From positions 1,812,586-1,876,585 of the forward strand of contig LJIE01000001.1 of NCBI GenBank assembly GCA_001281695.1: a stretch of 64,000 bases of DNA. The letters run 5' to 3'. Shown here piece after piece: positions 27,664 to 48,629 of the stretch (its first letter is position 1; every line of letters begins with the position of its first letter). The stretch comes from a bacterium 336/3. GTDB lineage: Bacteria > Bacteroidota > Bacteroidia > Cytophagales > Thermonemataceae. Both the position numbers and the translations under genes were made by a program. The notes beneath the pieces were generated by a model, which saw only the letters and a list, made by a program, of their open reading frames with translations, was not told the origin of the DNA and made no database searches.

Positions 27664-30423
27664 ATGAAACAGAAACTTTATTTATCATTTCTAGTAAGCT
27701 TGATGTGCTTATTAAATTTCCAACAAAGCTATGGACAAGCTGGCAATAACGACCCTACTTTTAATGTAGCAGATAATGGTATATCTCTAAATGGGACAAT
27801 CTATGGATTGGCTACACAGTCTGATGGAAAAATATTAGTATTAGGTAATATTATGGATGGTTTGGTTCGCCTCAATGCAAATGGTTCGTTTGATAATACC
27901 TTCAATATTGGAACAGGGTTTGAAGGAGGAAGTGATTTATCTGTGGTTAAAGTGCTTTCAGACGGGAAAATTCTTGTTGGTGGTGAATTCTCAAGTTATA
28001 ATGATACATCTGTGAGTCGAATAGCTAGAATCAATACAGATGGCAGCTTAGACAATACCTTCAATATTGGCACAGGATTTAATGGACCAGTTACTTCTAT
28101 TGCTATACAATCTGATGGAAAAATGGTAGTAGGAGGATATTTTACTAGTTATAATGGTAATGCAGTTAGCCAAATAGTTCGTTTAAATGCTGATGGTACA
28201 CGAGATAACACTTTTGCTACAACAGGTACAGGGTTGAATGATGGTATTCAATTGGAATCTATTTTTATTCAGAGTGATGGAAAAATTATAGTAGGAGGAA
28301 CTTTTACGAGTTATAATGGTAGCTCTGTCAATCGTATAGCTAGACTCAATACAGATGGTAGTTTAGATAATACTTTTAATATTGGGACTGGTTTTAATCA
28401 ATATTCTGCTTGTCTTGCTCTACAATCTGATGGAAAAATATTGGTAGGTGGGGCTTTTACGAGTTATAATGGTAGCTCTGTCAATCGAATAGCCAGACTC
28501 AATACAGATGGCACATTGGATAATACTTTTAATATTGGGACAGGATTCAATAATTTTATTCAGTCTTTGACATTACAATCTGATGGGAAAATACTGGTAG
28601 GTGGAGGCTTTACTAATTATAATGGTACTACAACCAATCGAATTGCCAGACTCAATGCTGATGGTACGTTAGATAATACTTTTAATATTGGGACAGGCTT
28701 TGATGTAAGTGTTTTTGATATTAAAATTCAATCAGATGGAAAAATATTGGCTGGGGGGATTTTTAATCGTTTTAATAATAATCCTGCATCAATTTTGGTT
28801 CGCCTCAATGCAAATGGTTCATGGGATAGCTTACTCAATACAGCTTCAGGAGTAAGCCAAAGTGTAAGACAAGTAAAAGTGCAACCTAGTGGGAAAATAA
28901 TAGTAGCTGGAGGGTTTCGTCTTTTTGGAAATGAAGCTCGAAAGTTCTTAATGCGTTTAAATGCTGATGGTACGCTAGATAATACCTTTAATACTGTTGG
29001 GTCTGGTTTTAATAATTCTTTTTCTAGTTTTATAATACAACCAGACGGAAAGATTATAGGAGTAGGAGGATTTACAGATTATGATGGCACATCTGTGAAT
29101 CGAATAGCACGACTGAATGCTGATGGCACTCTCGATAATACCTTTAATGTAGGAACTGGTTTTAATCAATTTGTTCGTAATATAGCTTTACAACCTGATG
29201 GAAAAATAATATTAACTGGAAATTTTACCGAATACAATGGTACAAGTGTAAATTATATTGCCAGACTCAATACAAATGGTACTTTAGATAATACATTTAA
29301 TATTGGGACTGGTTTTGATAATCAAGCTGAAGCAATAATAATTCAGTCAGATGGAAAAATATTGGTAGGAGGAAGTTTTACCAGCTATAATGGTACTGCC
29401 AGAGAATTGATAGTTCGTTTGAATGTAGATGGCAGCATAGACAATACTTTTAGTGTTGGAACAGGATTCAACAATTCTCCTACAACTTTCGCTCTTCAAA
29501 AAGATGGAAAAATTATAGCAGGAGGGTATTTTACTACCTACAATGGTAGCTCTGTGAATCGAATAGCCAGATTAAATACAAATGGTACACTCGATAACAC
29601 TTTCAACATTGGAACAGGGTTTAATAATGGTGTTAGAGCTATCACTATTCAGTCAGATGGAAAAATACTGGTGGGTGGTGAATATTTTACTACTTATAAT
29701 GGTGTAAATATTAGTCAAGGAATAACATGCTTAAATTCAGATGGTACACGAGATACAAATTTTAATGTCAATGCTTTAGGAGTTACAGGAGGCATAGAAA
29801 CAATAGATTTACAACCAGATGGAAAAATTATAGCAGGAGGATATTTTTATGCTTATAACGGAGTGGCTAGAAATAATTTGGTAAGAATTCTTCCAAGTTG
29901 TCCTAACTCTAATAATGTAGTTTTTTCAGATTTACTAGTTGCTCCTTTGTTACAACCTTATACCCAAACACTCACTCAAAATATGTTGGGTGGTATGCTC
30001 TCTTGGGCTGTAACGGCTGGTACATTGCCTACTGGTCTGATTCTCAATACTTCAACAGGTGTTATTTCTGGTACACCAACTTCTCCTGTAGCTTCAAATT
30101 TTACCATTCAGGTATCTAATGGAGTGTGTAGTGTTACCAAAGAATACAACTTTATTGTTGATCCTATTGCGGGTATAGACTCAAAAAATCAGATTGTAGA
30201 AAAAGTATATCCCAATCCCAGCCAAGATAAAATCCATATTGATTTAAAGCAAAGTAGCAATTATAGTTTCAAATTACTTAACAGCATGGGTAAGGTAGTA
30301 AAAGAGGGCAGAATAGATGGTTCAAATCTCACTTTGGATATTGCCTCATTGCCTCAGGGAGTGTATTTCTTGGAATTATCAAAAGAATTCTCTCATCAAG
30401 TAATTCGAATCTCTAAAATGTAG
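27664..30423 (+). CDS. Delta-60 repeat (beta-propeller) T9SS surface protein, copy 2
   Basis: 919 residues, a close paralogue of 21578-24319. The signal peptide ends QSYGQ. Fourteen delta-60 repeats (QSDGKILVGGxFTSYNGSSVNRIARLN and variants) are followed by an Ig-like segment (GTLPTGLILNTSTGVISGTP) and a nearly identical T9SS sorting domain (IDSKNQIVEKVYPNPSQDKI). The extreme C-terminus differs (HQVIRISKM instead of KIIKQ). The sorting domain is more conserved between the copies than the repeats, fitting selection for export together with divergence of the binding face. The ligand is unknown. Confidence 0.88.
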   Translation: MKQKLYLSFLVSLMCLLNFQQSYGQAGNNDPTFNVADNGISLNGTIYGLATQSDGKILVLGNIMDGLVRLNANGSFDNTFNIGTGFEGGSDLSVVKVLSDGKILVGGEFSSYNDTSVSRIARINTDGSLDNTFNIGTGFNGPVTSIAIQSDGKMVVGGYFTSYNGNAVSQIVRLNADGTRDNTFATTGTGLNDGIQLESIFIQSDGKIIVGGTFTSYNGSSVNRIARLNTDGSLDNTFNIGTGFNQYSACLALQSDGKILVGGAFTSYNGSSVNRIARLNTDGTLDNTFNIGTGFNNFIQSLTLQSDGKILVGGGFTNYNGTTTNRIARLNADGTLDNTFNIGTGFDVSVFDIKIQSDGKILAGGIFNRFNNNPASILVRLNANGSWDSLLNTASGVSQSVRQVKVQPSGKIIVAGGFRLFGNEARKFLMRLNADGTLDNTFNTVGSGFNNSFSSFIIQPDGKIIGVGGFTDYDGTSVNRIARLNADGTLDNTFNVGTGFNQFVRNIALQPDGKIILTGNFTEYNGTSVNYIARLNTNGTLDNTFNIGTGFDNQAEAIIIQSDGKILVGGSFTSYNGTARELIVRLNVDGSIDNTFSVGTGFNNSPTTFALQKDGKIIAGGYFTTYNGSSVNRIARLNTNGTLDNTFNIGTGFNNGVRAITIQSDGKILVGGEYFTTYNGVNISQGITCLNSDGTRDTNFNVNALGVTGGIETIDLQPDGKIIAGGYFYAYNGVARNNLVRILPSCPNSNNVVFSDLLVAPLLQPYTQTLTQNMLGGMLSWAVTAGTLPTGLILNTSTGVISGTPTSPVASNFTIQVSNGVCSVTKEYNFIVDPIAGIDSKNQIVEKVYPNPSQDKIHIDLKQSSNYSFKLLNSMGKVVKEGRIDGSNLTLDIASLPQGVYFLELSKEFSHQVIRISKM

Positions 30424-33469: not shown

Positions 33470-34816
33470 TTAAAGTCTGGTATTAGGCGACCATATTTTA
33501 CCCTCATGCTCTAAATGTGTTTGTAAAAGCCCAGCCACTTCATCATGGTTGAGGTGTTTCATGTTTTTTTCGAGCATCCATATTTTACAATACCTTGCAA
33601 AAGACCTGATGGAAGCTCCTGTATTATCTACTTTGGCTGCAAAATATTCAAAATTGACATTTCCTAATTCAAGATCTTTGAAAGCTTCACACCAAATATC
33701 ATAACGAGTATTAGCATCAGGAATAGGGAAAGGGACTCTGACATTGAACCTTCTGACAAAAGCCTTATCCATATTTGGAAGTTTGTTGGTTGCCATGAAA
33801 ATAATACCTTTGTGGTCTTCTATTCTTTGAAGTAAATAGGCAATTTCCTGATTTCCATAACGATCATTGGCAGAGTTGTTTTCAGTTCTTTTCCCAAAGA
33901 GAGCATCTCCTTCATCAAAGAATAGAATCCAGTCTTTATTTCTAGCAATATCAAATATTTTTCCAATGTTTTTGGATGTTTCTCCCACCCATTTACTGAC
34001 CACTTGTGAGAGGTCAATTCGATAAACAGGTTTTCCAAAATCTTTTCCAAAGAGAGCTACAGAGATACTTTTACCAGTTCCAGGCTCACCATGCAATAGA
34101 AATTTCATTCCTTTGGTAAATTTCTTGAAAGTAGGGTCTTGAACAATAGTATTATAGTTTCTCATCCAAGCAAAGATATCTTGGAGGTAGAAAGTAGTTC
34201 TTTCAGGGAGAATCAAATCGTCCCAGTTTTCTTCGGTGGTATAAAGAGTAGCAGGGAAATCTTCAGAATATTGGTATTGGTAAGAATTGCCAGTTGTGAA
34301 ATATTCAAAATACTCATCTGAAATATGAATGGTTTTCTGATAAAGGTCTTTACTTTGCCCCCTTAGCTCTATGATGTTATTAGCAAGAAAAATATTATCA
34401 GGGTTAAAAAAATTACCCAAAAAAACTCTATCAGCAATATTTTCGCCTGTGGCTAAATACAAAAAAGTTTGTACAGAAGGCATTACAAAAGAGTTTTCTG
34501 CTATGATTCCAAAATTTGCATAATTTTTTTGCGTATAGGGGTTATTTACATGTAAAAGTTCTAACACAGAAGGTCGTAATGCTTTTGCCATACTTAAAAT
34601 GAGTAGCAGGCGAACTGGTGTTTTTAAATTCTCAGGAACATTCTCTAAAAAGGCATTATAATAAGATTTTTGAATTAATTGAGGCGGATTTGGAAATTTT
34701 ATTACTTTATCTTCTGTAATTTCTTTGAAGCGAGCTTGTATAATGGTAATCAACCACTCTAATTCTTTTTCTAAGGCTTGTGTATTTGACGTAAAATTTT
34801 CTGAAGAAAACTGCAT
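33470..34816 (-). CDS. AAA+ ATPase of the contractile-injection-system type
   Basis: 448 residues from the ATG at 34816 (MQFSSENF). The frame is open another 103 codons upstream, but that part has no protein-like character and covers the divergent promoter region. The N-terminal 200 residues are the helical/beta domain usual for this family. The AAA+ core has Walker A GEPGTGKS (243-250), Walker B ILFFDE (297-302), sensor-1 MATN and arginine fingers in FVRRF (355/356). Such ATPases (Afp15/Pvc15-like) are a hallmark of eCIS clusters and act late in particle assembly. It is divergent from the LysM gene at 34940. Confidence 0.88.
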   Translation of the reverse strand: MQFSSENFTSNTQALEKELEWLITIIQARFKEITEDKVIKFPNPPQLIQKSYYNAFLENVPENLKTPVRLLLILSMAKALRPSVLELLHVNNPYTQKNYANFGIIAENSFVMPSVQTFLYLATGENIADRVFLGNFFNPDNIFLANNIIELRGQSKDLYQKTIHISDEYFEYFTTGNSYQYQYSEDFPATLYTTEENWDDLILPERTTFYLQDIFAWMRNYNTIVQDPTFKKFTKGMKFLLHGEPGTGKSISVALFGKDFGKPVYRIDLSQVVSKWVGETSKNIGKIFDIARNKDWILFFDEGDALFGKRTENNSANDRYGNQEIAYLLQRIEDHKGIIFMATNKLPNMDKAFVRRFNVRVPFPIPDANTRYDIWCEAFKDLELGNVNFEYFAAKVDNTGASIRSFARYCKIWMLEKNMKHLNHDEVAGLLQTHLEHEGKIWSPNTRL

Positions 34817-34939
34817 ATTTTTGGTTTCGTAATTCCTTTTTTTTATTTTTGATAGAATAAAGCAAAAAAACATAGTTTTTGTTAGAAAACAAATAAATAT
34901 AAAGACATCTTTATATTGTATCTTTAAAAATATACAACT

Positions 34940-36274
34940 ATGAGTTTCCAGTTTTCCCAAAATAACCAAACTAACTTTACCAATACAACTACTGAAAAAG
35001 ACCCTTATCCTACTTGGATGCCAAAATATATAGTACAAGAGGGTGATGACTTTTGGAAGATTGCAAGGAAAATGTATCCTGACCTCCCTGATGATAAAAT
35101 AGCCATTAAAGTGAAGCGTCTCCAAGAAATCAATAGTGATAAAAAGACACTCAAAGTAGGAGATGCATTGAATAATTTAAGCTTTGTGGAGTGGCAAGAA
35201 AGCATGGGTAAAAGTATTTCTAAGAAAACTGCTTCCGTTTTTGATACAGTTGAAAAAGGAAAAAAAAAGACTTTAGGTTTCTTGGCTGGAAAAGAAGATG
35301 AAACAAAGAACAAGGCTGTAAAGAGTGTGAAAGCTAACCCTCAAGAAACACAAGCTAAAAAAGCAGCTTCAAAAGCAACAACTGATGCTGTGAAGAATAT
35401 GAAACCAGAGGAAGAAGAAGAGAGTTTGTATAATAGATTTGATAATACAATGAGAAACTGGGAATTTGGAAAAAAAATGGATGCTAGTGCAGATGAAATA
35501 AAAAATATATTTGGTGAAAAAGTAGCAGAAGGGAAAGAAGAAAAAGAAAATGGCTGGTTTAATAAACTCGATAATGCAATAAAAAACTCTGAACTTGGAA
35601 AAAAAATAGATGCTAGTACAAAGGCTATAAAAGGAAAAGGTGGTGGTACACAAGAAGAGGGTATTATTGTTGATGATGATGGGGCTAAATTTGATGGGCA
35701 AGATGCCCATTTAGCCAAAGCTAAACACCTTTGGGGGCATGCAGATTGGGGAGCACTAAGTTTGATGCAAATGGCTTTGGGTATTGAATTGCCTGAAACA
35801 CAACTCTCCAGAGGGGATAAATATAGTATATTAGAAAACAAACTGGCAACAATCATTAATACAGGAAAAGATTACCAAAGTGATATTGGAGGAGCAAATG
35901 AAGAAAGTGAAAAAGAAGCATTACAAAATGCTGAATTAGAGAAAAATCTAAAAACTATGTTTAAATTGTATGAGGAACTCAAACCTTTGGGTTATGGTTT
36001 ACAAAATTTGGAATGTTCTTTCCCAAGCGAAGACATCAAAGAGTTTGATAAAGGAGAGAAAGTACAAAACTTTGAACAAGTAAAATCTTTTGCAGAAAAG
36101 AATAATGTTTTTATTTTGGATGTCCAGTTTAGAAACTTGCAAATCCAAGACAAGGGTAATATGATTCCAGCAGGGCATCTTTCTACACCAGTGATGATAA
36201 AAATTTTAAAAGCAATCAAAGCTAAAAAAGGAGCTTTGAATTTAGCAGAGTATAATAAAATAATTAATCAATAA
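34940..36274 (+). CDS. LysM-domain eCIS-associated protein
   Basis: 444 residues, no signal peptide. Residues about 28-80 are a LysM domain (YIVQEGDDFWKIARKMYP, LQEINSDKKTLKVGDAL). A long charged linker follows with two related segments (LYNRFDNTMRNWEFGKKMDASADEIK and FNKLDNAIKNSELGKKIDASTKAIK, shown here as parts). The C-terminal domain is at about 255-444 (HLAKAKHLWGHADW). LysM proteins of this sort accompany CIS tube and baseplate genes and may cap or connect the tube. Divergence from the CIS-type ATPase with 123 bases between supports an eCIS role; the exact structural role is inferred. Confidence 0.78.
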   Translation: MSFQFSQNNQTNFTNTTTEKDPYPTWMPKYIVQEGDDFWKIARKMYPDLPDDKIAIKVKRLQEINSDKKTLKVGDALNNLSFVEWQESMGKSISKKTASVFDTVEKGKKKTLGFLAGKEDETKNKAVKSVKANPQETQAKKAASKATTDAVKNMKPEEEEESLYNRFDNTMRNWEFGKKMDASADEIKNIFGEKVAEGKEEKENGWFNKLDNAIKNSELGKKIDASTKAIKGKGGGTQEEGIIVDDDGAKFDGQDAHLAKAKHLWGHADWGALSLMQMALGIELPETQLSRGDKYSILENKLATIINTGKDYQSDIGGANEESEKEALQNAELEKNLKTMFKLYEELKPLGYGLQNLECSFPSEDIKEFDKGEKVQNFEQVKSFAEKNNVFILDVQFRNLQIQDKGNMIPAGHLSTPVMIKILKAIKAKKGALNLAEYNKIINQ

Positions 36275-43220: not shown

Positions 43221-45986
43221 GTGATAAACTTTGTTGAGAAAATTATTGTAGACGCTTCTTTTGAAATGAGTCAAGAAAAAGGGCAAGCCATACGTCCTTT
43301 TTTTCATGATTTGATACGTTCGGCATTTCCCAAAGCTATTGATGATGTTCTGAGTTCAAAAAAGAAATATCAATACAAAAAATATGACCAAATTCACTTG
43401 GATTTGGGGGTGATTTCCTTAGAAAACTTCCAGAGTAAAATTATAGATGCTCTAAAATCTAAACTCAAAGAGTTTTTTATGGGGCAAGAAGATATAGTCT
43501 TAGAGCCTCATCAGATACTTTTAGAAATACTGACTCAATTCTTAAAAGAAGGAAACATTACAAGTAGTGCCGAAACACTCTGGCGAAATTATCAATATAT
43601 TTTTAAAGAAGATACCCCTTTCTTACAGCCAAAGTCTTTTAGCATCCAACTCATTATAGAAGAGTTGATAACACATCATAGAGAACAATTTTCAGTGTTT
43701 TTTAAACAAAATATTGAAAACAGTACCATTCTTCAGAGGTTTATTTTAAATGTGCCTGAAGGTATTCTTTTAGAATTAGTGGATTCTCAAGTAAAACAGA
43801 TTATTAGGTTTTTTAGAACATTCTATAAAACCAAGAGCCATACCCAAATTATTGAAAATACCCTTAAATTAGTAATTTGGCAGAGTGTTTTAAGAGTATT
43901 GTATCAAGAAAATGCACCCCAAAACTCTCAGCAAATAGCTTTGAGCCTTATCAAAACTATCATACAAAATTTAGGTTTGAAGCAGAAAATACATATACGA
44001 AAAGTTATCTTACAAAAAGAAATCTCTATTAGTCCTCCAACACTTCAAAAAGAGGTTTTAAATATTTTGAAAGAAATATTGGGTGAAGAAATTTTGACAT
44101 ATTACTATTCAAAAAAACACATATCTGTTCAAGAGTTTTTAGAAGAGTTCACCAATTTCTTTACAAATCAAGAGTATATTTTTATTGAACGTTTCTTGCG
44201 TGATATAGTGGATATTAATCAACAAATACCAACACAACCTCAACCACAATCACAACCAATTTTTCAACTAAATATAATTTCTAAAGTAATATTAAGGAGT
44301 GTTTTTCAACAAGATTTTTTTGAAAAAGAAATTACTACTAATCAATCTATTCAAGAATCTTTTGTACAAAATGTACTAAAAACATTCCTTTTAGAAACAA
44401 ATATCGAATATATTTTTGATAATTTGAATTACTTGCAAAAATCTCAAAATAAGATAGTTGCACAAGTTTCAACGGATTTTTATCAAAAAATTTTACAAGA
44501 AGCTAAAAAAGCTAATATAAGTTTAAAAAACAATCTTTTATCTCCTAATCAACAGAAAGCTATTCAGACACTTAGAGAGCTAATGGGTTTAGAGACGCCG
44601 TCTGTAGTGACAGAAAAGATAGCATTAGATATACTCATACAATTATTGAGTATAGGTGCAATATCCCCAAATGAGCTTATTTTACTTGAAAAAGGTGAAG
44701 TAAACCTGCAACAAGCAATTCAAGAAATTTTAGCCAAAAAGAAAACCTTATTACGTGAAAAACTGCTTACCATTACCAACAAACCCACCAATTTAGCACT
44801 CTCACAGTTAAAAATCTATTTGAGTGACGATTTGATAGAGATACTTTTAGAAGGAATTGGGAAATCATTACAAAAAATCTCTAAATCAAGACTCAAAGAG
44901 CTTAAAAAACAATATACAACCCCCCAATATTTATTTGAAGAGATAGAATTCTTACTTGAAAATAAAGTAGTTAGAAAAAATATAGAAGAAAGTCTGCTTT
45001 TTGCCTATCAGAATTATGAAAAAGAGTTGACTCTGTTTATTCAGGAAACCTCTGACGAACATTATAAAGTATTATTGGATTATAAAATAGACTTCATTGA
45101 GCATATTTTACAGGAAGATGTTCGTTTTATTGAACAAAGTGTAGATTTACAAATTTTTTACCTTACATTTTTTATTAGAAACAAAAAAATACCTGAAAAT
45201 ATAGCATCTAAAATACAAAGAGTAGAAGCATTTATTGAAAATATACTGATTCTCTTAGCTGAAAAACATCCTGAAAAACTACAAATGATTTTGAGTAGTT
45301 TTGTTTCCAAAGAACTGACAATGCTTAGAAAAATAGCTCCTAAAATTATCAAGAAGTTTTATCAGAAACTGACCACAGAAGAATTAGTTCAAAAAGCTCT
45401 TGAACAAAGAATAAAAGAGAAAAATACTGCCAATAATACTGCATCTGAAAATCAAGAATCTAAAGAATTGCCTAAAAAGAATAAGGAAATCTATATTGAA
45501 AACCCAGGCTTGATACTTGTACATCCTTTTATCAATACCTTATTTAGACGATTGGGATACTTGAATAAAAAAGAATTTGTAGATAAAGATATACAACACA
45601 GAGCGGTCTATTTGTTACAGTATATTGTAGATGGTAACACTGAGCCCAAAGAAGAACACCAGCTAATTTTAAATAAATTACTTTGTGGCGTTCCTCTCAG
45701 AGAGCCGTTGCTTACAGATATTATTCTTTCTGAAACAGAAAAGGAAACTTGCGAAAGTTTATTGGAAGGAGTTATAGGCAATTGGACAACACTCAAAAAT
45801 ATAAAACCTGCTAATTTTAGAGCATCTTTTATGAAAAGAGAAGCAAAACTAACAGATAAGTTTGATTTTTGGGAGTTAAAAGTAGAGGCAACAGGTGTGG
45901 ATGTTCTTTTAGAAACATTGCCATGGAGTATCAAAATAATAGTCTTTCCATGGATGGAGAAAAGTATCAATGTAGATTGGAGCTAA
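43221..45986 (+). CDS. Contractile injection system tape-measure-type protein
   Basis: 921 residues from a GTG start; the segment VEKIIVDASFEMSQEKGQAI already matches the conserved N-terminal pattern of the CIS tape-measure family, so the later ATG (43266) would cut into it. It is almost entirely helical, rich in Lys, Glu, Ile, Leu and Gln, with a conserved-looking C-terminal section (ENPGLILVHPFINTLFRRLGYL ... ILNKLLCGVPL, shown in parts; then LLEGVIGNWTTLKN). In eCIS this protein sets or guides tube/sheath length. It is flanked by terminators on both sides, so it is a single-gene transcript. Family assignment rests on motif memory, not a search. Confidence 0.85.
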   Translation: MINFVEKIIVDASFEMSQEKGQAIRPFFHDLIRSAFPKAIDDVLSSKKKYQYKKYDQIHLDLGVISLENFQSKIIDALKSKLKEFFMGQEDIVLEPHQILLEILTQFLKEGNITSSAETLWRNYQYIFKEDTPFLQPKSFSIQLIIEELITHHREQFSVFFKQNIENSTILQRFILNVPEGILLELVDSQVKQIIRFFRTFYKTKSHTQIIENTLKLVIWQSVLRVLYQENAPQNSQQIALSLIKTIIQNLGLKQKIHIRKVILQKEISISPPTLQKEVLNILKEILGEEILTYYYSKKHISVQEFLEEFTNFFTNQEYIFIERFLRDIVDINQQIPTQPQPQSQPIFQLNIISKVILRSVFQQDFFEKEITTNQSIQESFVQNVLKTFLLETNIEYIFDNLNYLQKSQNKIVAQVSTDFYQKILQEAKKANISLKNNLLSPNQQKAIQTLRELMGLETPSVVTEKIALDILIQLLSIGAISPNELILLEKGEVNLQQAIQEILAKKKTLLREKLLTITNKPTNLALSQLKIYLSDDLIEILLEGIGKSLQKISKSRLKELKKQYTTPQYLFEEIEFLLENKVVRKNIEESLLFAYQNYEKELTLFIQETSDEHYKVLLDYKIDFIEHILQEDVRFIEQSVDLQIFYLTFFIRNKKIPENIASKIQRVEAFIENILILLAEKHPEKLQMILSSFVSKELTMLRKIAPKIIKKFYQKLTTEELVQKALEQRIKEKNTANNTASENQESKELPKKNKEIYIENPGLILVHPFINTLFRRLGYLNKKEFVDKDIQHRAVYLLQYIVDGNTEPKEEHQLILNKLLCGVPLREPLLTDIILSETEKETCESLLEGVIGNWTTLKNIKPANFRASFMKREAKLTDKFDFWELKVEATGVDVLLETLPWSIKIIVFPWMEKSINVDWS

Positions 45987-45988
45987 AA

Positions 45989-46012
45989 AAAGCCCTGAAT
46001 TTTCAGGGCTTT
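45989..46012. terminator. Bidirectional terminator
   Basis: A 10-bp stem AAAGCCCTGA/TCAGGGCTTT (45989-45998 with 46003-46012), loop ATTT, with A-rich and T-rich flanks. It serves the converging tape-measure and GH18-like genes. Confidence 0.85.
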
Positions 46013-46017
46013 ATACT

Positions 46018-47880
46018 TTAAGGTAAGTCTTGTTCTGATAAAAACTTTCTACTGAGGAATATAAAAATAATAGCTCCAATTAGTAAACCCAGCATCAAAA
46101 ATGCAGCAGCATTGACATGAGTACTTTTGTGATTATTCATAATGACAAGAATCAGAGTTGCTCCCATAATCATAAAGGTAACTACACCACCTTTGAGTAG
46201 TAAATTTGTCATACGTTTCATACGACAACCATAACGATATAATACCCAAAAGCCAGCTAAACTTACGCCAAAAAGCATCCCAAATGATGACAGAGCATAC
46301 ATAGGATTCGAGAAAATAAGTTTAGGGTTAGTAGCCAAACGCAATAAAGAGCTTAAAAATCGTTGCCATCTGCTTGTAGTACTTCCTGCTTTGGCTGTTT
46401 TAGCACTTTCTGGTTGAGCAAATTTGCTTGCCAACAAACTCCAAAGTTGAGTGTGTCCATTATCATAGCCCAAAGCCCAAATACCTACACCACCCAATTT
46501 TTTTTGTAAAATCCAATCGTATTTTAAGCCTAAAGAAACACTATCTTCCATCCAAATTTGTCTTCTATTGCCTTCAGTATCTTTATATACATAAAATGCA
46601 CTTGATGATTCAGCATCTAAATTAGCTCTTGCTCCACTAAATTGGTTTTGAAACTCATGATAAGTAAGATATCTGACAAATCTTTTTGCTAAAGAAGGAG
46701 TTTGAAAATCTTCTGTTACCCACTCAGCACCATAATAGCCAAATGCAATCAATAGTTTCTTAGGGTCAATGCCAGAAGCTAAATATTCAGTAGAAGCTTT
46801 ATCTACATCCAATCCCCACCATTTTCCACCACTTTTAAGAGGGGAGATAGGACCTGCATAGGCTGTATTTTCTCCATAAAAATCGAAAGCACACAAAACA
46901 AATAAATCTACATAACTTCTGATAGGTTGTATTTGATAAGCATTTTCAAGGTCGGCTGCGGGTAAAGAAATACTTAAAATAGCATTTTTATTTTTACTTT
47001 TTAATTCTGCTGAAAGCTCAATCACCAAATCTGCAAAAGAAGACTGACTTTCGTAAGGAACCCCCATTAAATCCAAATGGACCCCATCTGCTTGTTTCTC
47101 TGTTACAAGTGCTACAATACTTTTGATAAAGTTAGTTTTGGATGAACTGCTTGATAAAAATGAATAATTATCTTTTTTTCCATAACATGAAGCACTTAGA
47201 AGTACTTTACTATTATGTTTGTGAGCTTCATCCACAATAGAGCTACTTTGCCAATCATAAATATTTCTATATGCACCTGTAGAAGGGTTTATTTCATAGC
47301 CCATATAGGCTACTGCTGAAAGCAAACTAAAATTATAACTCTTGTAAGCATCACCCATCCAGTGAGGATGCCAACCAAATACTTTGAAATCAGGTTTTAA
47401 AGTATGTTCTTTGCTATAAACTACACTGTTATTGACAGGAGGGAGATTTCTATAAGAAGAAGCTCTACGACTATCAGAATTGACAACCCTTTGTATAAAT
47501 TTAGATGTGTCAATGACCTGCTTAGTCATTTCAATAGAAGCTTTGTTTTGTGGTTTTACAATACTCAGGCCACTGTTAGTGCTTGTTCCATCATAAGAAG
47601 GTTGTTGTTCGGAGCCACTTTGTATAATTTTACCGCTTAAATCATAAAATTCTCCAAAACCTGAACCATCTTTGGGTTTAGCCTTGCCTGTGCTATCAAT
47701 AGGTGTATCTACTTTTTTTACATCCTTTTTTTCCTCAACAACAGGCTTTTTCTTGGATGTATCAGGCTTATTTTGAGTATCTACAAAAGTTTCGAGCTTA
47801 TTTTTTATTTGAGCTGAAACGCTTGTAGATAAAGTATTTAAAATACCTATCAATATTATTATAAATATTAAGCTTTTCAT
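46018..47880 (-). CDS. GH18-like membrane-anchored protein, catalytic Glu replaced
   Basis: 620 residues. The signal peptide ends SVSAQ and a Lys/Pro/Asp-rich linker follows. A GH18 (chitinase-like TIM barrel) domain lies at about 160-480 (VFGWHPHWMGDAYKSYNF, VLLSASCYG, FDFYGENTAYAGPISPL, GVGIWALGYDNGHTQLW). Three C-terminal membrane helices follow (about 525-615). The active-site strand reads DGVHLDLMGVP, where active family members have DGxxxDxEGVP; the Met codon is at 47065-47067. It is therefore likely a non-catalytic glycan-binding barrel facing the periplasm. It lies between the CIS tape-measure and fibre-like genes, suggesting a cell-envelope role for that system (inference). Confidence 0.82.
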   Translation of the reverse strand: MKSLIFIIILIGILNTLSTSVSAQIKNKLETFVDTQNKPDTSKKKPVVEEKKDVKKVDTPIDSTGKAKPKDGSGFGEFYDLSGKIIQSGSEQQPSYDGTSTNSGLSIVKPQNKASIEMTKQVIDTSKFIQRVVNSDSRRASSYRNLPPVNNSVVYSKEHTLKPDFKVFGWHPHWMGDAYKSYNFSLLSAVAYMGYEINPSTGAYRNIYDWQSSSIVDEAHKHNSKVLLSASCYGKKDNYSFLSSSSSKTNFIKSIVALVTEKQADGVHLDLMGVPYESQSSFADLVIELSAELKSKNKNAILSISLPAADLENAYQIQPIRSYVDLFVLCAFDFYGENTAYAGPISPLKSGGKWWGLDVDKASTEYLASGIDPKKLLIAFGYYGAEWVTEDFQTPSLAKRFVRYLTYHEFQNQFSGARANLDAESSSAFYVYKDTEGNRRQIWMEDSVSLGLKYDWILQKKLGGVGIWALGYDNGHTQLWSLLASKFAQPESAKTAKAGSTTSRWQRFLSSLLRLATNPKLIFSNPMYALSSFGMLFGVSLAGFWVLYRYGCRMKRMTNLLLKGGVVTFMIMGATLILVIMNNHKSTHVNAAAFLMLGLLIGAIIFIFLSRKFLSEQDLP

Positions 47881-47897
47881 GTGTATATATGTTTTTA

Positions 47898-48629
47898 TTA
47901 ATCTAAACTATCATCCATAAACTGATCGAGCCAAAGATTTGTAATATTATATTTTACATAATATTCACCGCCATAACTACATCTGGTACGCATTTCTAAT
48001 TGGTAATTGTAGGTTTCTCCACGCCAACGAAGTTCTATTTTATTACAATACGTACCATAATACGCCTGATTTACTTTGATTTTATTATTTGACTTCCCAA
48101 ATGTACTCATTGCCAATGCTTGAATAAGAGCATATTTACCTGTTTTCTTTTTTCCAATACCAGCCATTACTTCAAAGGCATAACAGCCATTTAAATTAGT
48201 AATAACAGGATGCCATTTTCCGTCAGCCAAAACTTTCCCTTGATGAAAAGTACCTACACGGCCTTTAGATGCTATGTTTCCATTAATATCTAATTCATGT
48301 TGAGGTTCTTTCTGTACAATACCAACTTTTCCTGTATTCTTGATAGTAACAATGCTATCACCTACTTGATTATTGATATTGAAGGAAGCATCAGAAGCAT
48401 CAATCTGAAAATGCCAAGCAGGATTCTTATCTTCAATACTTTTATAAAAACTGATTAATTTTTGAGAACTACCAATAGGTGAGAGAACCAAACCATCATC
48501 TAAAGTTTTGGACATTCCATCATCTACTTTATTTATCATAGAGTCAATTAAATCAAGAAAATGTTTTTCTGAAACCAATTGCCCTTTTTTGAAAAATGAT
48601 TTTAATGTATTCCTATTTTGTAAAGACAT
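47898..48629 (-). CDS. Fibre/adhesin-like eCIS-associated protein
   Basis: 243 residues, no signal peptide. It begins with the conserved-looking motif SLQNRNTLKSFFKKGQ...VSEKHFLDLIDSMINK, common to proteins at Bacteroidota contractile-injection loci. A phage-tail-like middle follows (NTGKVGIVQKEPQHELDINGNI) and a C-terminal beta domain of about 110 residues (WHPVITNLNGCYAFEVMAG ... RWRGETYNYQLEMRT). The middle resembles the pre-receptor segment of tail fibres; the C-terminal domain could bind a target. It lies 17 bases upstream of the GH18-like gene on the same strand, probably one operon. Confidence 0.72.
   Translation of the reverse strand: MSLQNRNTLKSFFKKGQLVSEKHFLDLIDSMINKVDDGMSKTLDDGLVLSPIGSSQKLISFYKSIEDKNPAWHFQIDASDASFNINNQVGDSIVTIKNTGKVGIVQKEPQHELDINGNIASKGRVGTFHQGKVLADGKWHPVITNLNGCYAFEVMAGIGKKKTGKYALIQALAMSTFGKSNNKIKVNQAYYGTYCNKIELRWRGETYNYQLEMRTRCSYGGEYYVKYNITNLWLDQFMDDSLD

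What the first reader, a model, noticed from the sequence alone, without database searches (positions are those of the whole stretch)
46018..47880. Membrane-anchored GH18 pseudoenzyme beside eCIS genes
The active-site strand reads DGVHLDLMGVP where catalytic GH18 proteins carry Glu at the Met position. The rest of the barrel is preserved, and three C-terminal helices anchor it. A dead glycan-binding barrel in the periplasm, co-directional with a fibre-like gene, could be a peptidoglycan-contact or docking protein for the contractile particle.
Basis: partly seen in the sequence, partly recalled or inferred. Interest (0 to 1): 0.6.

Follow-up and report, generated by a model that had tools for sequence, protein, structure and literature searches.

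The report
Membrane sugar-barrel tied to injection machines
A membrane-held relative of chitinases, which has lost its key catalytic residue in this bacterium, belongs to a protein family encoded with a spear-like injection machine, and probably helps seat that machine in the cell envelope.

Summary
In detail: window 46018-47880 (-) encodes a signal peptide, a GH18 barrel and three C-terminal helices, with catalytic Glu replaced by Met272 and catalytic Tyr by Phe332. The context claim is stronger than stated, the pseudoenzyme claim narrower. Membrane-type relatives accompany one Bacteroidota contractile injection system (CIS) lineage and in 16 of 41 mapped loci head the CIS genes. All 24 of 148 related genomes with a strong match carry the CIS tape measure. 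Their sheaths group with those of Cardinium, whose CIS is the membrane-anchored T6SSiv, apart from short-tape-measure CIS. Glu is kept in 45 of 50 relatives, so Met is not the family state; yet Glu was lost about four times (Met, Asp/Lys, Ala, Ile), and Asp-Glu-Tyr are all intact in only 24 of 50, against 20 of 20 membrane-free relatives. The last residue is Pro in 47 of 48 complete proteins. The neighbouring fibre begins like Cis13, which anchors Anabaena CIS to a membrane. Best reading: a membrane-side docking or wall-contact subunit whose catalysis is dispensable. Glycan binding and docking are inferred, not shown.

The parts
46018..47880 (-). GH18 membrane protein P0001 (620 aa), the subject of the finding
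47809..47880 (-). signal peptide, about residues 1-24 (cleavage site read by eye)
   Evidence: hydropathy peak at residues 1-25; sequence
46411..47391 (-). GH18 TIM barrel, residues 164-490
47056..47088 (-). active-site strand DGVHLDLMGVP, residues 265-275
47065..47067 (-). Met272 (ATG) at the catalytic Glu position
46885..46887 (-). Phe332 at the catalytic Tyr position
46234..46305 (-). membrane helix 1, residues 526-549
46135..46215 (-). membrane helix 2, residues 556-582
46042..46122 (-). membrane helix 3, residues 587-613
46021..46041 (-). short C-terminal tail ending in the conserved terminal Pro; cytoplasmic side inferred from topology
45989..46012 (-). terminator-like hairpin with T-run after the GH18 gene
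   Evidence: 1 found, 1.2 expected in shuffles: weak alone
47898..48629 (-). Cis13-like short fibre protein P0002 (243 aa), 17 bp upstream on the same strand
48513..48629 (-). P0002 residues 1-39, matching the N-terminus of All3316 (Cis13) of Anabaena tCIS
43221..45986 (+). CIS tape-measure protein (921 aa), convergent with the GH18 gene
   Evidence: PF19268, 2.5e-83

Best explanation
The protein is the membrane-side, envelope-contact subunit of a T6SSiv-like CIS. Its signal peptide puts the GH18 barrel in the periplasm; three C-terminal helices hold it in the inner membrane; its short tail, ending in a near-invariant Pro, faces the cytoplasm, where the CIS baseplate with its Cis13-like fibre (P0002) would dock. 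The barrel would touch a beta-1,4-linked amino-sugar polymer, most simply peptidoglycan, where the tube must leave the cell. Most relatives keep Glu and may also cut the polymer. In the window protein Glu and Tyr are gone, so it could only bind or act as a scaffold. Shown: domain layout, changed catalytic residues, CIS operon membership of relatives, co-occurrence, sheath clade, conserved terminal Pro, Cis13-like start of the fibre. Inferred: topology, glycan ligand, docking partner, role in anchoring or exit.
For: Co-occurrence: 24 of 24 genomes with a strong match (E<1e-40; 18 genera) have CIS_TMP, against 15 of the other 124. At class level 11 of 11 genomes whose match reaches model position 554 or beyond have CIS_TMP, against 38 of 384 others. 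Linkage: a CIS gene within 20 kb in 17 of 22 testable genomes of the 24. In 16 of 41 mapped loci it stands directly before the CIS genes on the same strand; in two named plasmids it lies inside the CIS cluster. Anchored lineage: the 26 sheaths from GH18-bearing genomes or loci and all five sampled sheaths of the Cardinium family lie in one clade, 100/100, with all nine short-tape-measure rows outside; one of the five is Cardinium of Encarsia by a plasmid match of 100%; Cardinium has T6SSiv. P0002 residues 1-39 match All3316 = Cis13 (E 1.3e-4), whose N-terminus binds the baseplate and whose C-terminus anchors the particle. Terminal Pro in 47 of 48 complete proteins, in 0 of 8 membrane-free relatives whose ends are seen. 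Gene and CIS operon look intact, so a barrel without Glu is kept in a live-looking system.
Against: No binding, localisation or interaction was tested. Glu is kept in 45 of 50, which points to catalysis as the usual function. Seven Cardinium-family genomes have P0002 but no GH18 match, and G119, whose sheath is in the same clade, has neither, so the lineage can work without it. In 5 of 22 testable genomes it is not near a CIS gene. One copy (L043) sits beside sheaths of the other type (L088; G018b). The Cis13 match is 39 residues at a modest E-value, and the P0002 model failed (mean pLDDT 37.5). P-values ignore kinship.
Confidence: 0.5

Rival explanations
1. Dedicated peptidoglycan hydrolase: the family opens the wall locally so that the CIS can assemble or fire, as MltE does for a T6SS of E. 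coli. The window protein has lost this job and another hydrolase of the cell does it.
For: Glu kept in 45 of 50. Spore cortex-lytic SleL, a wall enzyme, is among the structural matches (4s3j, 4s3k). Precedent: MltE and TagL (passage of PMC10781749).
Against: Asp270, Glu272 and Tyr332 all intact in only 24 of 50, against 20 of 20 membrane-free relatives. Four Glu losses on the tree, with the terminal Pro kept in the four no-Glu proteins that are complete. No second copy in the window genome.
Confidence: 0.3
2. Release factor: an endolysin-like protein that helps lyse the producer so that particles are set free.
For: Membrane-tethered periplasmic barrel encoded with a phage-tail-like system; released eCIS leave by cell lysis (passage of PMC8894135).
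Against: It accompanies the anchored lineage; none of the seven genomes with only short tape measures and no P0002 has a strong match. Without Glu and Tyr the window protein could hardly lyse cells.
Confidence: 0.1
3. Neutral decay: the window gene is losing function and the Met is an accident with no bearing on the family.
For: Met is found only in the window protein among 50 relatives; its branch (0.55-0.62) is at the long end for its clade; 7 departures at conserved barrel positions.
Against: Frame, helices and terminal Pro intact; CIS genes of near-median length; neighbours' branches reach 0.56; independent Glu losses elsewhere in CIS-bearing genomes.
Confidence: 0.1

Closest known systems
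T6SSiv of Amoebophilus and Cardinium
   Same: Sheath clade; P0002 family next to the gp6-like baseplate gene in the six Cardinium-family genomes mapped (the seventh, G096, was not fetched). Papers seen describe an inner-membrane anchoring complex and a cage site for attachment (passages of PMC12210884 and PMC8894135).
   Different: No GH18 match in the seven Cardinium-family genomes searched. The Amoebophilus genome itself was not compared, and the original T6SSiv paper is not held.
Anabaena thylakoid-anchored CIS (tCIS), fibre Cis13/All3316
   Same: P0002 begins like Cis13, the fibre that joins baseplate to membrane (section 8 of PMC8894136).
   Different: Cis13 carries its own membrane helix; P0002 homologues show none in 29 of 30 by hydropathy, and a separate membrane protein is encoded next door.
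CisA of Streptomyces CIS
   Same: Membrane protein encoded in the CIS cluster with an extracytoplasmic domain, proposed to bring the particle to the membrane (abstract and passages of PMC12237407).
   Different: CisA has one membrane segment, a cytoplasmic N-terminus and a domain like solute-binding proteins; no sequence comparison was made.
TagL and MltE of the E. coli type VI system
   Same: Wall-binding and wall-cutting helpers of an envelope-anchored injection system (passage of PMC10781749).
   Different: Unrelated folds (recalled); here both possible tasks would sit in one GH18 barrel.
Chitinase-like lectins (CHI3L1/YKL-40, Ym1)
   Same: GH18 fold; among the structural matches (1hjv, 5xep, 1vf8); lost catalytic Glu (recalled).
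   Different: Secreted animal proteins with no membrane part and no link to CIS (recalled).
Predicted chitinase-like eCIS toxin EAT3
   Same: A GH-like protein tied to an eCIS locus (passages of PMC8213781).
   Different: A predicted effector of Dickeya zeae; the protein here has a signal peptide and membrane helices. No sequence comparison was made.

Membership tests
GH18 (fold family) | GH18 profile and TIM barrel | tested here: met
   PF00704 1.4e-36; Z 37.6 over 318 residues
GH18 active enzyme | Catalytic Glu ending the DxxDxDxE motif (motif recalled) | tested here: not met
   Met272 in the window protein; Glu in 45 of 50 relatives
GH18 active enzyme | Tyr of the M-x-Y-D motif (recalled) | tested here: not met
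   Phe332; Tyr in 40 of 50 relatives
GH18 active enzyme | Hydrolysis of chitin or peptidoglycan | not testable with these tools
   needs purified protein
Chitinase-like lectin | GH18 barrel without Glu that binds oligosaccharide | tested here: inconclusive
   fold and loss of Glu met; binding not testable here
T6SSiv-like CIS | Sheath in one clade with the Cardinium T6SSiv sheath | tested here: met
   (100/100), identity of one Cardinium genome
T6SSiv-like CIS | Anchored to the inner membrane, in arrays | not testable with these tools
   needs cryo-electron tomography
Released eCIS (short tape measure) | Sheath groups with the short-tape-measure CIS of the same order | tested here: not met
   that those CIS are released is inferred, and Algoriphagus was not in the tree
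Cis13-type fibre (P0002) | Baseplate-binding N-terminus like All3316 | tested here: inconclusive
   39 residues, E 1.3e-4; structure model failed
Cis13-type fibre (P0002) | Own C-terminal membrane helix | tested here: not met
   hydropathy
CisA | Sequence homology to CisA | not tested
   domain make-up differs as read

The most novel reading that the evidence does not exclude
In free-living Bacteroidota the T6SSiv-like CIS is seated in the envelope by a split anchor: a Cis13-like fibre on the baseplate (P0002) and a separate three-helix membrane protein with a periplasmic GH18 barrel, whose terminal-Pro tail is the docking element. The barrel began as a wall enzyme and has repeatedly become a pure wall-binding lectin, so binding rather than cutting is the selected function.
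Probability: 0.35. Interest if true: 0.78.

Novelty: new variant of a known kind. Interest (0 to 1): 0.6.

Why it matters
In the papers seen, the way T6SSiv-type systems are held in the inner membrane is described only as a unique anchoring complex or an attachment site on the cage (passages of PMC12210884 and PMC8894135). A conserved, genetically linked membrane protein with a wall-type glycan barrel is a concrete candidate that one gene deletion could test. Repeated loss of catalysis with the membrane part kept would be an unusually clear natural series from enzyme to scaffold. I found no held paper that describes a GH18 protein as an envelope part of a CIS: the full-text searches returned two papers each, judged here by title and start of abstract only, and one search listed 20 of 234. 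The library lacks most subscription journals.

Tried and rejected
Catalytic Glu at another position: rejected by the residue alignments. Met conserved in orthologues: rejected. Injected effector: set aside, since a signal peptide and three membrane helices do not fit tube cargo. Sequencing slip: unlikely, at least two base changes in one codon plus a second catalytic change. P0002 structure: the model from two sequences failed and was not searched. PHROGs and NCBIfam gave no family for P0002 and only a phage family of unknown function and a match far below its cut-off for P0001. Sigma-70 promoter scan around the two genes: no more than in shuffles. Literature: GH18 with contractile injection found two versions of one Pseudoalteromonas symbiosis study; glycosyl hydrolase with inner membrane found two phage papers.

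Rows dropped before counts: L022, L030 and L040 (same genomes as L001, L002, L003), L020 (the window itself) and L044-L049 (other GH18) from the family counts; L121 from the membrane-free set because it starts after the motif; L007, L008, L017, L018 and L031 from the tree. In one search the G056, G018 and G119 sheaths were left in no group; of 24 strong-match genomes 17 are in its GH18 group, and G008, G065, G103, G104 and G140 have no row.

Full report
What is there. The ORF 46018-47880 (-) encodes 620 aa: a signal peptide, a low-confidence linker, a GH18 barrel (PF00704, 1.4e-36) and three C-terminal helices (526-549, 556-582, 587-613). Ten-residue pLDDT means are 79-97 in the barrel and about 58-74 in the helices. 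The barrel matches GH18 chitinases at Z 37.6, 318 residues, 2.0 A. In the alignment to Cycas chitinase 4mnl (an E119Q mutant) Met272 stands opposite the mutated Glu and Phe332 opposite the Tyr of the M-x-Y-D motif. The codon is ATG where the four relatives looked at have GAA or GAG. The structural matches include Glu mutants solved with bound oligosaccharide (5y2c E2180L, 5wvg E647L), so a GH18 barrel without Glu can hold a glycan; whether this one does is untested.

Immediate surroundings. Upstream on the same strand, 17 bp away, is P0002 (243 aa), so the pair is probably co-transcribed. Downstream are a terminator-like hairpin and the convergent CIS tape measure. The core CIS genes of the window genome lie just before the window (L064): a 947-aa gene with a weak baseplate-assembly match, sheath (527 aa), two tubes, CIS_tube, spike, PAAR, gp25, a gp6-like gene (1256 aa), a Pvc16-like gene and one without a family (families named on representatives of the same clusters). 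The sheath is about 58 kb from the GH18 gene. Gene lengths are near the cluster medians, so the system is not visibly decayed. The window genome gave a single match to this protein.

Orthologues and operon membership. A scan of genome contigs gave 19 loci. Of 148 related genomes 46 matched, 24 of them strongly (E<1e-40). In 16 of the 41 loci mapped (L004-L010, L015, L016, L018, L019, L068, L072-L074, L080) the GH18 gene stands directly before the CIS genes on the same strand: Pvc16-like, sheath, tubes, CIS_tube, spike, PAAR, gp25, gp6-like and, where the stretch reaches that far in the Cytophagales-type loci, the P0002 homologue. Some of the 41 loci are cut by contig ends or share a genome. 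Of the 24 genomes, 22 allow a linkage test: 17 have a CIS gene within 20 kb (G000, G004, G011, G018, G052, G056, G065, G066, G067, G080, G090, G092, G095, G103, G104, G130, G141). In 5 (G008, G037, G084, G128, G133) the fetched 16-20 kb held none, and tape measure and P0002 lie on other contigs. G039 and G140 lie on contigs of about 3 kb. Two named plasmids agree: in Persicobacter psychrovividus pPP2 the GH18 gene overlaps the DUF4255 gene and is followed by the tape measure, with sheath to gp6-like and a protein resembling P0002 by eye on the other strand; in Aureibacter tunicatorum pAT3 it follows two tube genes directly.

Co-occurrence. All 24 strong-match genomes have CIS_TMP; 15 of the other 124 do (Fisher 9e-18, which ignores kinship). 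The 24 fall in 18 genera. Of them 23 have a strong P0002 match and one (G018) a weak one. Strong P0002 without GH18 occurs in 7 genomes, all of family f22. The other 8 CIS_TMP genomes have neither: seven have tape-measure frames of 426-588 aa, and G119 one of 1129 aa. The three other genomes of the window's genus in the survey (G001-G003) matched none of the three queries. At class level (395 genomes) 11 genomes have a match reaching model position 554 or more, and all 11 have CIS_TMP at E<=1e-10, against 38 of 384 others. The class search scored at most three candidates a genome, so misses are possible. Most of the other class-level hits match the barrel only.

Which CIS lineage. In a tree of 47 sheaths one clade (35 rows, 100/100) holds all 26 rows from GH18-bearing genomes or loci, all five f22 rows and four ungrouped rows, among them G119, which has no GH18 and no P0002 match. 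All nine rows labelled short tape measure (seven genomes and the second cluster of G052, a label I gave) lie outside, as do three ungrouped rows of G018 and G056. The f22 genome G122 has a contig whose first 12,000 bases are identical to the plasmid of the Cardinium endosymbiont of Encarsia pergandiella. Passages of PMC12342168 say that all Cardinium sequenced so far have T6SSiv homologues. T6SSiv is attached to the inner membrane, with a site on the baseplate cage taken as the attachment point (passages of PMC8894135). The Amoebophilus sheath itself was not in my tree. One exception to the pattern: L043 (G018) sits beside sheaths of the other type (L088; rows G018b).

Active-site erosion. I counted 50 membrane-type relatives, window included: 48 and two from plasmids. 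Not every one was shown to lie near a CIS (for example L011-L014), two are truncated (L017, L042), and several Saprospirales rows are near-identical. Position 272 is Glu in 45; the others are Met (window), Asp (L041), Ala (L042), Lys (L043) and Ile (Aureibacter, L182). Position 270 is Asp in 33 and Asn in 14. Position 332 is Tyr in 40. All three are intact in 24 (23 of 48, plus L181), against 20 of 20 membrane-free relatives. On the tree the Glu losses need four changes, the same across the 5-95% bootstrap range, two of them forced by well-supported branches. The label is not more clustered than in about a tenth of shuffles, as expected for scattered losses. L182, L042, L041 and L043 are on long branches, so their places are unsure. 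The membrane-free relatives nest among the membrane type in that tree, so neither is a clean clade. In the window's clade of nine rows Tyr is replaced in seven (Phe, Thr, Asn, Gln), so the window protein looks like the end of a local slide.

Constraint. The window protein departs at 7 otherwise conserved barrel positions, several of them in the active-site strands. Its branch (0.62, 0.55) is at the long end of its clade, where neighbours reach 0.56, but the frame, helices and terminal Pro are intact. Pro is the last residue in 47 of 48 complete proteins (45 of 46; both plasmid ones; the exception is L117), and in 0 of 8 membrane-free relatives whose ends are seen, three of which may end at an in-frame stop. 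A near-fixed last residue on the cytoplasmic side suggests a contact made by the tail; this is inference.

The partner. P0002 residues 1-39 match All3316 (7b5h) at 1.3e-4. All3316 is Cis13, whose N-terminus binds the baseplate and whose C-terminal helix anchors the Anabaena CIS in the thylakoid; truncating it frees particles (section 8 of PMC8894136 read; identity from passages). P0002 homologues carry a VGIxxxxPxxxLxVxG motif that I know, from memory, from tail fibres, and show no membrane helix in 29 of 30 by hydropathy (the one exception, L080, probably has an over-extended start). Passages of PMC12210884 propose that Aasi_0556 of T6SSiv is Cis13-like and may help anchoring. That P0002 belongs to the Aasi_0556 family is my inference from its place beside the gp6-like gene. 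So the fibre seems to lack its own membrane part, and a separate membrane protein is encoded beside it.

Mechanism and doubt. I think the GH18 protein is the envelope side of the docking site, binding wall glycan where the tube leaves, with cutting optional. Conservation of Glu in most members says that cutting matters in many species; its repeated loss, including here, says that it cannot be the only function. Cardinium-family genomes and G119 do without the GH18 protein, so it is not universal in the lineage. CisA of Streptomyces (abstract and passages) shows that a cluster-encoded membrane protein can be needed for firing; TagL and MltE are precedents for wall-binding and wall-cutting helpers (passage).

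Novelty. In the library searched I found no description of a GH18 membrane protein as an envelope part of a CIS. A predicted chitinase-like eCIS toxin, EAT3, is in print but appears to be a different thing. I file this as a new variant of a known kind.

Noticed in passing
window 16787-43088: Between the core CIS genes (L064) and the tape measure/GH18/fibre group lies a block with leucine-rich-repeat genes, two DUF5122 propeller proteins with type IX sorting tails (21578-24319, 27664-30423) and an AAA ATPase (33470-35125) of the same cluster as one beside the core genes. Persicobacter pPP2 also has a run of leucine-rich-repeat genes after its tape measure.
   Followed up: no
L088 8990-15061 (G018 contig 225): A GH18 membrane protein with Lys at the catalytic position sits beside two sheath genes that group outside the T6SSiv-like clade.
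   Followed up: partly
L182 11617-13347 (Aureibacter tunicatorum pAT3): Annotated as glycoside hydrolase family 18, yet the catalytic Glu is Ile and the Tyr is Asn; it lies in a plasmid-borne CIS cluster.
   Followed up: yes
L005, L010, L019, N-termini of the GH18 proteins: In these relatives the signal peptide looks like a lipoprotein signal with a Cys (sequence), so they may be held at both ends.
   Followed up: no
window, whole: The pattern TTTG-N17..23-TAnnTTTG (Bacteroidota promoter, recalled) occurs 17 times, 6.9 expected, in none of 100 shuffles as often; none lies just before the fibre/GH18 pair.
   Followed up: no
L112, L113, L115, L116, L118, L120, L122-L133: GH18 relatives without the membrane part, many in long frames, with the three catalytic residues conserved, common in the class.
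   Followed up: partly
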